Below, in pieces: positions 16,828 to 61,578 of a stretch of DNA of 64,000 nucleotides. The stretch covers positions 1,240,001 through 1,304,000 of the forward strand of contig NZ_CP034145.1 of the NCBI RefSeq assembly GCF_003856835.1, given 5' to 3'. The stretch comes from Haloplanus aerogenes. GTDB taxonomy: Archaea; Halobacteriota; Halobacteria; Halobacteriales; Haloferacaceae. The position numbers were made by a program, and so were the translations under genes. Under the pieces are notes generated by a model, which saw only the letters and a program-made list of their open reading frames with translations, was not told the origin of the DNA and ran no database searches. The first letter of the stretch is position 1. Every line of letters starts with the position of its first letter.

Positions 16828-16886
16828 TCGCCCCCTCTGCCGCCCCGGATAGCTTCAAGAGCCTCGCCGGCGTGTAGCCGTGTGTA

Positions 16887-16949
16887 ATGGTAACGAACGT
16901 GACATTCGTCGACGCGGCGACGACGCCGCTGGAGCGGAGTGATGCCTGA
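16887..16949 (+). CDS. possible 20-residue leader peptide overlapping the tail-tube gene start
   Basis: ATG at 16887 opens 20 codons (MVTNVTFVDAATTPLERSDA) that end in TGA at 16947-16949, just inside the start of the tail-tube-like gene at 16942. The overlap would couple translation of the two. It may instead be chance or a remnant of a longer lost gene. No homology is recognised. Confidence 0.25.
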   Translation: MVTNVTFVDAATTPLERSDA

Positions 16950-17562
16950 CCGACATGGCCCGTTCCGGATGGCCCGCTTTCTCGTCGAAATCGACGGCAT
17001 CGCGAAAGCCGGGTTCAACTACTGTCGGCTCCCTACCTCCTCGACCGCTGTCGTCGAGTATCGCGAGGGCAACGACCGGCCCACGCCCCGGAAACTCGCC
17101 GGCCTGAACGAGTACGGCCCGCTGGAGTTGCGGTACGGCGTCACGATGGACGGCATCGAACTCGCCGAGTGGTGCCGACTGGTCCAGCAGGGCACGGTCG
17201 ACGAGGCGCGGCGAGCCATCGCCGTCGTCCTCCTCGACGAGGAGGGAGCGTCGGCGGCACGGTGGGAACTCCGGAACGCGTGGCCCGCCCGATACGAGGC
17301 CCCGACGCTGGACGCCGACCGCTCCGCCGTCGCCATCGAGACGCTCGAAATCGTCCACGAAGGGGTCGAACGCGTCGACATGGGCGGCGAGACTGACGGC
17401 GGAGAGCGACGGGACGAGGGTGAACGGGAGACGGCGGACGAACCGGACGAGCCGGAGACGTATCAGACGAAACACGAGAAACCGGAGACACGACGGACGG
17501 AACACGAGAAGCCCGAGACGCGACGGACGAACCACGACAAGCCACCGAAGCGGACGAAATGA
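16942..17562 (+). CDS. phage T4 gp19-like tail-tube protein with repetitive basic tail
   Basis: A 206-residue protein. Residues about 1-150 match the gp19-type tail-tube family of contractile phages and injection systems: FLVEIDGIAKAGFNYC, VVEYREGND, RKLAGLNEYGPLELRYGV, then IAVVLLDEEG, WELRNAWPARYEAP and VAIETLEIVHEG. The C-terminal 55 residues are charged and contain near-tandem units of about ten residues based on HEKPETRRT. ATG at 16942 is preferred over the adjacent GTG at 16939. The stop overlaps the start of the next gene (ATGA). No sheath, baseplate, spike or AAA+ gene is nearby, so the product may be a leftover or a repurposed tube subunit. Confidence 0.75.
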   Translation: MPDRHGPFRMARFLVEIDGIAKAGFNYCRLPTSSTAVVEYREGNDRPTPRKLAGLNEYGPLELRYGVTMDGIELAEWCRLVQQGTVDEARRAIAVVLLDEEGASAARWELRNAWPARYEAPTLDADRSAVAIETLEIVHEGVERVDMGGETDGGERRDEGERETADEPDEPETYQTKHEKPETRRTEHEKPETRRTNHDKPPKRTK

Positions 17563-18062
17563 CCGACCGCCCTGTCGATCCCTACGGCCGTCACCGGTTC
17601 GACGTCGACCTCGGTGACGACCGTCCACCGCTCGGCTTCACCGAGGTCAGCGGCCTGTCGGTCCGCGTGCAGGCGCGACCGGCGGACGACGCCCCCGAGG
17701 ACGACAATGTGGACTGGTTCGACTGGGGCGACCGTCTCGGGCGTGCGGTCGGCCGCGTGCCATCCGCCCCACGACGGCGGACTGTCTCACCGACGCTCAC
17801 GCTTCGGCGGGGTGTCACCGACGACCGACGGCTCTGGGACTGGCTTCAGGACTGGGTGGCGGGGATCGTCGATCCGCGGACGGTGCGGGTGTTTCTCCTC
17901 GACGCTGCAGGCGAGCGAGCGCGGGGGTGGCGCTGTGTCGACGCCACACCGGTCCGGTGGGACGGGCCGGAACTGGTGGCCGACCGGCCGGCCGCCGCCA
18001 CCGAGACGCTGGAACTGGCTCACGAGGGCATCGAGGCGATCACCGGCGACGGCGATGAGTGA
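17559..18062 (+). CDS. second phage T4 gp19-like tail-tube protein
   Basis: A 167-residue protein of the same gp19 tail-tube family, more diverged: YGRHRFDVDLGD, LGFTEVSGLSVRVQ, TLTLRRGVTDDRRLWDWLQDW, VRVFLLDAAGE and AATETLELAHEGIEAI. It lacks the repetitive tail of its partner and has an Asp-rich insertion after residue 40. The ATG overlaps the preceding stop by four bases, so the two form an operon. In contractile injection systems, two or more tube paralogs commonly stack in the inner tube, which fits a pair but not a complete machine. Confidence 0.72.
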   Translation: MTDRPVDPYGRHRFDVDLGDDRPPLGFTEVSGLSVRVQARPADDAPEDDNVDWFDWGDRLGRAVGRVPSAPRRRTVSPTLTLRRGVTDDRRLWDWLQDWVAGIVDPRTVRVFLLDAAGERARGWRCVDATPVRWDGPELVADRPAAATETLELAHEGIEAITGDGDE

Positions 18063-18101
18063 TCAATCACGCTTAAGCGTCGTCGTCCGCATCATCCGGC
18101 C

Positions 18102-59280: not shown

Positions 59281-59601
59281 ATGAGTTCCGGCTCCGAGAA
59301 GAAGCGCGTCCAGTTCCGCGCACCGAGAGGATTGGTGGACCGGGCCGACGCGCTCGCGGCGGTGTTCGAGACGGACCGGACGGACATCCTCATCTCCGCG
59401 CTTCGGGAGTACCTGCGAGACGCCGCGCACTCCGACGAGGTGAAACAGGAGATTGCGGACGCCTTCTACGACGACGACATCTCGTTCGAGGAGCTGAAGG
59501 ACCTCGTCGGTCACGAGGAGGCCGCCAACTTCCGCCTCCTGAAAGAGCAACTGACCGACGAGTTCGTGGACGAAGTCGCGGAGGAACTGGGCGACTCGTA
59601 G
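59281..59601 (+). CDS. ribbon-helix-helix type antitoxin
   Basis: A 106-residue protein. The N-terminal strand and helices KRVQFRAPRGLVDRADALAA and TDRTDILISALREYLRD make a ribbon-helix-helix DNA-binding unit. The C-terminal half is acidic and helical (EEAANFRLLKEQLTDEFVDE), the likely toxin-binding part. Start ATG 59281 is chosen at the domain boundary. The PIN toxin gene follows with no gap (stop 59601, start 59602). It has a G+C content closer to core genes than the other cassettes. Confidence 0.82.
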   Translation: MSSGSEKKRVQFRAPRGLVDRADALAAVFETDRTDILISALREYLRDAAHSDEVKQEIADAFYDDDISFEELKDLVGHEEAANFRLLKEQLTDEFVDEVAEELGDS

Positions 59602-60126
59602 ATGGTGCTGCTCGTCGCCGACACGTCGGCCCTCGTGAGCCTCGGAACCGTAGTAGACAACTCACTGAACCCACTCGACCTCCTCCTCGATTCGCACACC
59701 GTGGTCGTCCCAGAACAGGTCGTCACCGAACTCACCGAGACGGCGTCCTACGACGATGCCTCGGGTGAAGCGGCGCAAGCAGTTCTCGACCGTCGCTCCG
59801 CGTTCGAGGTACGTTCCGTCGAACTGGACGAGACGTTCCCGCTGGACGACGGCGAGAACGCGGCGGTCACGCTGGCGAACGAGGTAGCCGCCGTGCAACT
59901 ACTCTGTGACGAGTTCAATCGACTCGCGCTCGTCCACGCCTCGCTGGCCGAGGTCCGACTCGTCACGACACCCAGCCTCCTCACTGCGCTGGTTCGCAAC
60001 GACGCAATCTCGCCTGACGCTGCCGAGGCGTTCCTGACCGAGATGAGTGATGCTCGCAGTTGGTCGTCGAATTCCTACGTTGCGCGGGCGAAGTCTACGC
60101 TTCGACGGCAACGCGATAACGGTTAA
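59602..60126 (+). CDS. PIN-domain toxin, long form
   Basis: A 174-residue PIN nuclease. The acids are in LLVADTSALVSLGTV, in VVTELTETASYDDASG, in PLDDGENAAVTLAN and in LLCDEFNRLALVHA. The ending (SPDAAEAFLTEMSDARSWSS) is longer than in VapC. This is the DUF3368-like branch often paired with RHH or UPF0175-type antitoxins. It starts directly after the antitoxin stop and is the last gene of cassette 3. Confidence 0.83.
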   Translation: MVLLVADTSALVSLGTVVDNSLNPLDLLLDSHTVVVPEQVVTELTETASYDDASGEAAQAVLDRRSAFEVRSVELDETFPLDDGENAAVTLANEVAAVQLLCDEFNRLALVHASLAEVRLVTTPSLLTALVRNDAISPDAAEAFLTEMSDARSWSSNSYVARAKSTLRRQRDNG

Positions 60127-60226: not shown

Positions 60227-60637
60227 TCACTCCTCGTCAGTCGATTCGACGCTATCCCGAATCACCATCACTTTCACACGCCGCACGCCGTCGAAATCAC
60301 GAAGCTGGTAGGTCAGTTCGCGGATTCGCGCCGCCGCCCCGCGACAGAACAGCGATTCGAGACACCACTCTCCCTGATGGGTGTGGCTCGTGTTGAGGAT
60401 CACGTCCTGATACGCGTGCTGCACCGAGTGCAGTTCCGCGATGACCTCGTGGTGGCGGTAGTCGAACGCGACGAGTGCGACCACTTCGCCGCTCGTGGCT
60501 TCGAGACGCGAGTGAGACTCGATGTACTCCTGCATCGCTTCTCTGACCGCCCGCGACCGGTTTTCGAGTCCCTGTTCGTGCCACACGCGGTCGAACTCGT
60601 CGACGAGGTCGTCGGGGATGTTGAAACTCGTCCGCAT
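60227..60637 (-). CDS. nikR: nickel-responsive regulator NikR
   Basis: A 136-residue metalloregulator. The ribbon-helix-helix is MRTSFNIPDDLVDEFDRVW with NRSRAVREAMQEYIE. The metal-binding ACT-like domain keeps the expected Ni ligands: His in YRHHEVIAELHSVQH and the H-x-H...C set in TSHTHQGEWCLESLF. It represses nickel uptake or adjusts transport when Ni is bound. It is divergent from the Ni/Co transporter gene (start-to-start gap 107 bases), its likely target. ATG 60637 is preferred to the GTG six bases earlier. Confidence 0.9.
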   Translation of the reverse strand: MRTSFNIPDDLVDEFDRVWHEQGLENRSRAVREAMQEYIESHSRLEATSGEVVALVAFDYRHHEVIAELHSVQHAYQDVILNTSHTHQGEWCLESLFCRGAAARIRELTYQLRDFDGVRRVKVMVIRDSVESTDEE

Positions 60638-60675
60638 AGTCACCGACTCGTCGGTCGGCTACAAGAGTCCCACCG

Positions 60676-60713
60676 TATGACGATTCCCCCGTTTCGGTAT
60701 TAACAACCGTTAT
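60676..60713. promoter_or_regulatory. possible NikR half site and TAAC/GTTA palindrome
   Basis: GTATGA at 60676-60681 equals one half of the enterobacterial NikR site (GTATGA...TCATAC), but no proper second half is seen. TAACAACCGTTA at 60702-60713 is a palindrome (4-base arms) beside the transporter promoter. Both are weak candidates. Confidence 0.3.
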
Positions 60714-60744
60714 TGGCGTCGTTCGCGGACGCTCTCACAGGGAG

Positions 60745-61578
60745 ATGTTACACGGCGACGCACTCGGCCTGCTTCTCGGGGCGGTCGCGCTCGGTGCGGT
60801 CCACGGCGTCGAGCCGGGTCACGGCTGGCCGGTCGCTGCCTCGTACGCACTCGACCAGACGAACAAGTGGCTGTACGGGTTCGCAGCGAGTTTCATCCTC
60901 GGCGTCGGCCATCTCGTCAGCAGTATCGCGATGGTGGGGGCGTTCTTCTACGCGAAAAACTACTTCAGCCTCACGCAGGTCAACGAGCCGATTACGGTGA
61001 GCGGTGGCATCCAGATCGGCGGCCCCGTGAGCCTCGTTGCCGGTGTCTTGCTCATCGCGCTCGGGATTCGTGAGTACAGTCACGGGCACTCTCACGGAAC
61101 TCACGACCACAGCACCCACAGCCACGGCGACAGTGATCACTCACACGACCACGACCATTCTCACGATCACTCACACGACCACGACGAGCATTCCCACGAT
61201 CACGACGACGATGGGCTGTTCTCCCGATTGAAGGGGTTCGTCCCGTTCGTCGGCGGACATTCCCATTCGCACGCCGACCTCGACGAGGCTGCCGACCGTG
61301 GCCTCCTCGGCATCGCGTGGTTCGCGTTCCTGCTCGGCTTCGCACACGAGGAAGAGTTCGAGATTATCGCGCTCTGTGCGGGATCGAACTACTGTCTCGA
61401 ACTGATGAGTGCGTACGCCATCACCGTCGTCGTCGGTATCGTCGGGCTGACGATGCTGTTGATTGCGGGGTACCAGCACTACGAGGAGCGAGTCGAGCAG
61501 TTCACGCCGTATCTACCCGCGTTCTCGGCTGCCGTCCTCGTCGTCATGGGCCTCGGCTTCGTCACGGGGCTCCTCTGA
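60745..61578 (+). CDS. Ni2+/Co2+ transporter (NicO/RcnA-like) with His-rich loop
   Basis: A 277-residue membrane protein. Helix 1 carries GAVHGVEPGHGWPVAASYAL, with the paired His motif of the family. More helices follow (FAASFILGVGHLVSSIAM, GPVSLVAGVLLIALGI). The central loop, residues about 110-155, contains more than 20 His in HGHSH/DHDHSHD runs. The C-terminal half has GFAHEEEFEIIALCAG, a conserved metal path. It exports or imports Ni/Co across the membrane; direction cannot be told. It has a ribosome-binding site (GGAG) directly before the ATG at 60745. The adjacent nikR supports nickel. Confidence 0.87.
   Translation: MLHGDALGLLLGAVALGAVHGVEPGHGWPVAASYALDQTNKWLYGFAASFILGVGHLVSSIAMVGAFFYAKNYFSLTQVNEPITVSGGIQIGGPVSLVAGVLLIALGIREYSHGHSHGTHDHSTHSHGDSDHSHDHDHSHDHSHDHDEHSHDHDDDGLFSRLKGFVPFVGGHSHSHADLDEAADRGLLGIAWFAFLLGFAHEEEFEIIALCAGSNYCLELMSAYAITVVVGIVGLTMLLIAGYQHYEERVEQFTPYLPAFSAAVLVVMGLGFVTGLL

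What the first reader, a model, noticed from the sequence alone, without database searches (positions are those of the whole stretch)
16887..18062. Orphan pair of contractile-tail tube proteins beside hisC
Two adjacent genes match the gp19 tail-tube family used in contractile phages and extracellular injection systems, but no sheath, baseplate, spike, AAA+ or capsid gene is near. They overlap by an ATGA, have normal G+C, and sit between core metabolic genes. They may be a relic of an injection system, or tube proteins domesticated for another use. The first carries a repetitive HEKPETRRT-based tail not typical of tube subunits.
Basis: partly seen in the sequence, partly recalled or inferred. 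Interest (0 to 1): 0.6.

Follow-up and report, generated by a model that had tools for sequence, protein, structure and literature searches.

The report
Stand-alone injection-tube gene pair
Two neighbouring genes in a salt-loving archaeon encode the two tube proteins of a contractile "molecular syringe" without any of its other parts, and the same pair is conserved in many related species that lack the syringe, so it is a working two-protein cassette put to an unknown new use and not a broken leftover.

Summary
Gene A (16942-17562) and gene B (17559-18062) both match gp19 tail-tube families. A resembles the injection-system tube protein Cis1 and B the tube adaptor Cis5. They are the genome's only gp19 proteins; no sheath, gp25 or Baseplate_J is present. 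The stated start, 16887, is out of frame for A. It opens a 20-codon leader ORF that ends inside A's start region.

The pair is neither a relic nor private to this genome. It sits beside hisC in 8 of 12 congeners (the other 4 have the site empty), and at six unrelated sites in Halorubrum/Halobellus, Haloferax, Halorientalis and three further genomes. All copies form one clade outside the injection systems (100/99). Of 170 genomes of the family, 25 carry the pair and none of these has a sheath; all 17 with syringe-type tube genes do. The cores are under purifying selection (dN/dS about 0.25); the repetitive tail is fast-evolving and dispensable. Nearly every B has lost Cis5's EGG hairpin; A keeps most Cis1 residues.

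Best reading: a domesticated Cis1-Cis5 cassette making a sheathless two-protein ring complex. Its activity is unknown. I found no published description; the published haloarchaeal survey searched with the sheath and would miss it.

The parts
16847..16859 (+). Promoter-like element GGATAGCTTCAAG, about 30 nt upstream of the leader ORF
   Evidence: Similar GGAAAGnTTCAAkAG-type element upstream of gene A in the eight congeneric pairs; promoter function is inferred
16887..16949 (+). Leader ORF, 20 codons (MVTNVTFVDAATTPLERSDA*), ending inside gene A's start region (8-nt overlap ATGCCTGA)
   Evidence: Small ORF ending -2 to +11 nt from gene A's start in 25 of 27 pair loci, with varying lengths; about 8% of other genes show this
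16942..17562 (+). Gene A: gp19/Cis1-like tube protein, 206 aa (tube domain 1-146)
   Evidence: PF06841 4.4e-38, CIS1 NF053769 5.6e-31, phmmer to 9r9h_B 4e-17, best fold match 7adz_1a; dN/dS of domain 0.26
17380..17559 (+). Gene A C-terminal charged repetitive tail (HEKPETRRT-type units)
   Evidence: TRF period 30, 4.0 copies, 75% match at 17427-17543; dN/dS 0.68; short or absent in G074, XH8, Halorubrum, Halorientalis
17559..18062 (+). Gene B: gp19/Cis5-like tube-adaptor protein, 167 aa, with a variable loop (residues ~42-72) in place of Cis5's EGG hairpin
   Evidence: PF06841 2.3e-22, CIS5 NF053770 2e-21, best fold match 7aeb_Y (AlgoCIS); loop dN/dS 0.58, core 0.24; alignment
18072..18077 (+). 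CTTAAG box about 27 nt upstream of hisC: hisC's own promoter-like element
   Evidence: Present upstream of hisC in congeners with and without the pair (CGCTTAAGCGTC; one congener has CGCTTAACCGTC), so the pair is not needed for hisC transcription (function inferred)

Best explanation
This is a domesticated, self-contained cassette derived from the cis1 (inner tube) and cis5 (tube adaptor) genes of a haloarchaeal contractile injection system (CIS). A short leader ORF begins close to a promoter-like element; its termination hands ribosomes to gene A, and in this genus A's ATGA overlap hands them to gene B, so the two are made together in a set ratio. Protein A most likely still forms Cis1-type hexameric rings, possibly a short stack. 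Protein B is a Cis5-type ring that has lost the conserved hairpin found in Cis5, so it probably caps or closes A instead of docking on a spike and baseplate. The product would be a small cytoplasmic two-component ring or barrel that cannot contract or inject. Shown: homology, single ancestry, conservation, selection, absence of sheath, gp25 and Baseplate_J, leader ORF. Inferred: coupling, ring assembly, A-B contact. Unknown: the biological task.
For: A is Cis1-like and B Cis5-like by profile, solved-chain and fold comparison. All A's form one clade next to haloarchaeal Cis1 (95/88) and all B's one clade within the Cis5 branch (100/95); concatenated pairs are one clade against CIS, 100/99. Same site beside hisC in 8 of 12 congeners, empty site in the other 4. 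Same two genes at six other unrelated sites. No sheath in 25 of 25 pair genomes of the family, sheath in all 17 with CIS-type tube genes; also none in G223, G278, G367. dN/dS 0.26 (A domain) and 0.24 (B core) against hisC 0.20. A keeps 46 of 60 Cis1-conserved columns and loses 3; B keeps 36 of 54 and loses 12, including G, G, V, N and H of the hairpin; A and B distances correlate, r 0.85. Leader ORF in 25 of 27 loci against about 8% of other genes. Short overlaps are enriched for subunits of heteromeric complexes in Haloferax volcanii (PMC10666635), where coupling was tested directly (PMC6728339).
Against: No evidence of expression, ring assembly or A-B contact. The model of A is of moderate confidence (pLDDT 69, pTM 0.54) and only single chains were modelled. 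In Halorubrum and Halorientalis A and B are about 39-65 nt apart, so coupling of B is not universal. Four congeners live without the pair, so it is not essential. No biochemical activity can be named.
Confidence: 0.66

Rival explanations
1. An interference device: A and B co-assemble with tube subunits of a competing CIS or a contractile virus and poison tube assembly, which would explain patchy spread and why no genome carries both the pair and a CIS.
For: 0 of 25 pair genomes have a sheath although 18 of 170 family members do (hypergeometric p 0.048, not corrected for relatedness); both types occur in Haloferax but never together; patchy distribution at many sites.
Against: No halovirus in the phage collection has a close tube relative (the only hits are Streptomyces phages at 28-29%); nearest viral-contig match 43%. 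No hit to any defence family. The exclusion statistic is weak.
Confidence: 0.12
2. Decaying relic of a lost CIS operon.
For: The rest of the operon is missing; four congeners lack the pair; the tail and the loop evolve fast.
Against: Intact, adjacent and under purifying selection in many species; single clade at seven unrelated sites, which independent decay of local operons would not give.
Confidence: 0.05
3. Dispersed part of a divergent CIS or T6SS whose sheath and baseplate are beyond these models.
For: Only three partner families (sheath, gp25, Baseplate_J) were searched in the genome.
Against: The sheath model finds every CIS-type genome in the family (17 of 17) but no pair genome; no other gp19 in the genome; no conserved neighbours across sites.
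Confidence: 0.07
4. Each protein works alone as a soluble cytoplasmic ring or scaffold, with no joint A-B complex.
For: Hcp-fold proteins form stable rings by themselves (general knowledge); A and B are separated by about 39-65 nt in two genera.
Against: Always together in the pair clade, co-diverging (r 0.85), overlapping in the window genus.
Confidence: 0.1

Closest known systems
Haloarchaeal contractile injection system / archaeal T6SS of Halogeometricum borinquense (PMC11566945), Cis1 and Cis5
   Same: A and B derive from this kind of tube and adaptor protein
   Different: No sheath, gp25 or Baseplate_J; cis1 and cis5 brought together as an adjacent pair; B lacks the EGG hairpin; leader ORF. 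The published survey used Cis2 (sheath) as its query, so sheathless pairs would not appear in it
T4 gp19 / Pfam PF06841 tail tube proteins
   Same: Same domain family
   Different: No phage head, sheath or baseplate; nearest phage proteins only 28-29% identical
Stand-alone Hcp proteins of bacterial T6SS
   Same: Tube-fold ring proteins encoded away from the main cluster (general knowledge)
   Different: Orphan Hcps serve a T6SS in the same cell; here no contractile system was detected, and there are always two different subunits
Tat-signal single gp19 proteins of haloarchaea (L048, L049, L051)
   Same: gp19 domain in sheath-free genomes
   Different: Single, apparently exported, and derived from another Cis1 branch

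Membership tests
gp19 tail-tube family (PF06841 / TIGR02241) | Profile match above curated cut-off over the full domain | tested here: met
   A 130.6 bits, B 79.7 bits, cut-off 28.2; TIGR02241 127.2 and 67.6, cut-off 62.4
gp19 tail-tube family (PF06841 / TIGR02241) | Tube-type beta-barrel fold | tested here: met
   AlphaFold models match CIS tube chains: 7aeb_Y 1.8e-9 (B), 7adz_1a 4.2e-8 (A); Hcp lower in both lists
gp19 tail-tube family (PF06841 / TIGR02241) | Hexameric rings stacking into a tube | not testable with these tools
   Single chains only; A keeps 46 of 60 Cis1-conserved columns
Contractile injection system (CIS / eCIS / archaeal T6SS) | Sheath (Cis2, PF04984) in the genome | tested here: not met
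   Absent in own genome and in all 25 pair genomes of the family, present in all 17 CIS-type ones
Contractile injection system (CIS / eCIS / archaeal T6SS) | Baseplate components (gp25 PF04965, Baseplate_J PF04865) | tested here: not met
   Absent in own genome
Contractile injection system (CIS / eCIS / archaeal T6SS) | Spike, cage and AAA+ genes clustered with the tube genes | tested here: inconclusive
   The nearest neighbours at the sites examined by profile or by reading are metabolic or housekeeping genes, and no gene cluster is shared between sites; spike, cage and AAA+ families were not searched elsewhere in the genome
CIS1 / CIS5 equivalogs (NF053769, NF053770) | Score above equivalog cut-off (220 / 260 bits) | tested here: not met
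   107.7 and 76.0 bits: relatives, not equivalogs
Anti-phage defence systems (PADLOC) | Match to any defence family | tested here: not met
   No hits

The most novel reading that the evidence does not exclude
A mobile, sheathless two-ring device built from CIS tube parts acts by itself in the haloarchaeal cytoplasm, either as a static barrel that holds or gates something, or as an agent that blocks tube assembly of rival injection systems or viruses. Two invariant cysteines (A C28, B C126) may serve it.
Probability: 0.2. Interest if true: 0.85.

Novelty: new variant of a known kind. Interest (0 to 1): 0.6.

Why it matters
Contractile machines are known as complete devices; tube proteins without sheath or baseplate are normally read as phage debris. 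A tube-plus-adaptor pair with one origin, held by selection at seven unrelated sites in sheath-free archaea, would be a clear case of injection-machine parts reused without contraction. It also warns that sheath-based surveys miss such derivatives. Haloferax species carry it, so it can be tested in a genus with established genetics.

Tried and rejected
Prophage or virus origin: nearest phage proteins are 28-29% identical Streptomyces phage tubes, nearest viral contig 43%, whereas gene A copies in the pair clade are about 49-76% identical to the window's over full length. Plasmid origin: only two distant plasmid hits. Tandem duplication of one gene: rejected, A groups with Cis1 and B with Cis5. 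Part of the hisC operon: rejected, hisC keeps its own promoter-like box where the pair is absent. Tail as the functional novelty: rejected, it is absent in several pairs and nearly unconstrained. Defence family match: none. Horizontal transfer shown by tree conflict: not proven, the AU test did not reject one clade of the window family's pairs (p 0.094), so transfer rests mainly on the unrelated sites. Papers: no description of orphan tube pairs found in the held library; the H. gibbonsii virus-infection RNA-seq and genome papers do not mention them in their main text.

Full report
What is there. Gene A (16942-17562) and gene B (17559-18062) overlap by ATGA. Both match the gp19 tail-tube family well above cut-off. 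NCBIfam places A nearest CIS1, the inner tube, and B nearest CIS5, the tube adaptor, though both are below the equivalog cut-offs. Solved-chain searches return CIS tube proteins for both. Single-chain models (B pLDDT 78, A pLDDT 69) match CIS tube structures best: for B 7aeb_Y, an AlgoCIS chain, for A 7adz_1a, the AlgoCIS tube. Local G+C is normal. The upstream neighbours are a FAA hydrolase, a gluconate dehydrogenase subunit 3 and a GMC oxidoreductase; downstream are hisC and an AAA_18-domain protein.

Correction of coordinates. The ATG at 16887 is not in frame with gene A. It opens a 20-codon ORF that ends at 16949 inside the sequence ATGCCTGA, which carries A's start codon. In all eight congeneric pairs a small ORF of 16-24 codons ends at exactly this point, although its start lies at different distances. 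Across all 27 pair loci examined, 25 have a leader ORF ending between 2 nt before and 11 nt into gene A. In the control, 29 of 235 genes passed, 11 of them being gene A itself, so about 8% of other genes do. The loci are related to each other, so the 27 are not independent. A GGAAAGnTTCAAkAG-like element lies upstream in the congeners. In Haloferax volcanii, translation of overlapping genes depends on the gene before (PMC6728339), and short overlaps are enriched for subunits of heteromeric complexes (45.2% against 5.6%; PMC10666635). I infer that leader, A and B are translated in a coupled way in this genus; that is not shown.

Whole genome. The two genes are the genome's only gp19 proteins. 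Sheath PF04984, gp25 PF04965 and Baseplate_J PF04865 are absent. The genome is 99.9% complete in two contigs, and the window lies on the 3.46-Mb contig.

Conservation and sites. Of 170 genomes of the family, 47 have gp19 hits. From the spacing and the neighbourhoods I sort them into 25 with the pair, 17 with CIS-type tube genes, and 5 with a single gp19. In the window genus 8 of 12 carry the pair, all beside hisC; the other four have the GMC oxidoreductase directly followed by hisC. The same two genes stand at unrelated sites elsewhere: beside a PALP enzyme and an HHH protein in Halorubrum and Halobellus captivus, beside a glycosyl hydrolase 3 in Haloferax, beside ribonucleotide reductase in Halorientalis, between topoisomerase I and gatB in archaeon XH8, and at other sites in SHRA6 and G367. 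No other gene family is shared as a partner between these sites, apart from what look like multi-copy families.

Sheath test. The sheath model finds 18 of the 170 genomes: all 17 with CIS-type tube genes plus one without gp19 (G059). None of the 25 pair genomes is among them. Pair genomes G223, G278 and G367 outside the family also lack it. The exclusion p-value is 0.048 without correction for relatedness, so I treat exclusion as suggestive.

Ancestry. In a joint tree all A's form one clade (95/88) beside haloarchaeal Cis1, and all B's form one clade (100/95) within the Cis5 branch. Concatenated pairs are one clade against CIS (100/99). Halorientalis pairs (another family) do not fall outside the others, but a single clade of the window family's pairs is not rejected (AU p 0.094). 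So one origin is well supported; horizontal spread is likely, from the different sites, but not proven by the tree. A and B distances correlate (r 0.85).

Selection. Among the eight congeners median dN/dS is 0.26 for A's domain, 0.24 for B's core, 0.20 for hisC, 0.68 for A's tail and 0.58 for B's loop. The cores are therefore under purifying selection. The tail is a 30-nt-period repeat, only about ten residues long in G074 and absent in XH8, Halorubrum and Halorientalis. It is not a defining feature.

What changed relative to CIS. A keeps 46 of 60 Cis1-conserved columns and loses 3. B keeps 36 of 54 and loses 12 (lost meaning kept in under a quarter of the pairs), among them the G, G, V, N and H of Cis5's EGGVNxxxH hairpin, replaced by a variable loop that is missing altogether in G075. 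The AlphaFold model gives this loop low confidence. C28 of A and C126 of B are invariant in all 44 pair sequences of each kind examined (some genomes counted twice); in the CIS-type and other sequences compared they occur in 9 of 37 and 2 of 35. Both positions are otherwise hydrophobic, so packing could explain them; a redox or disulfide role is only a possibility.

Mechanism. My best reading is a two-component ring or short barrel: A rings, B as an end ring that no longer needs a spike or baseplate, made together by coupled translation, in the cytoplasm (by eye neither protein begins with a signal sequence). It cannot contract. What it does is unknown; interference with other tube-building machines is the most testable specific idea.

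Literature. The haloarchaeal CIS survey (350 genomes, 41 with CIS) used the sheath Cis2 as query (PMC11566945). I found no paper in the held library describing a sheathless Cis1-Cis5 pair. The library is incomplete, so novelty is provisional.

Noticed in passing
L048:9548-10090, L049 (G127, G130, genus g21), L051:9653-10213 (G091): Single gp19 proteins with twin-arginine-like signal sequences (L051 with a lipobox-like SGC) in sheath-free genomes: apparently exported tube-fold proteins on a different Cis1 branch. A second, independent domestication.
   Followed up: partly
L046, L047 (G145, G105) and L204 (G192): Further single gp19 proteins without obvious signal sequence or sheath, grouping on the Cis5 side of the tree on long branches.
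   Followed up: partly
L199:9129-10059 (G367): Highly divergent copy of the A-B pair in another haloarchaeal family, near an ABC-transporter operon, sheath-free.
   Followed up: partly
G059:C1:490649-491095: Sheath hit (8.5e-8) in a genome of the family with no gp19 hit; possibly a provirus.
   Followed up: no
window 17427-17543 and L033:10398-10500: KPETR/HEKP repeat units of gene A's tail recur in a congener (G070), with a different length.
   Followed up: partly
window 59281-60126: Two adjacent small genes (106 and 174 aa) that look by eye like a ribbon-helix-helix and PIN-type pair, but have no Pfam match above cut-off.
   Followed up: partly
window 60227-61578: NikR-type nickel regulator next to a divergent gene that looks by eye like a nickel-transport protein; ordinary.
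   Followed up: partly
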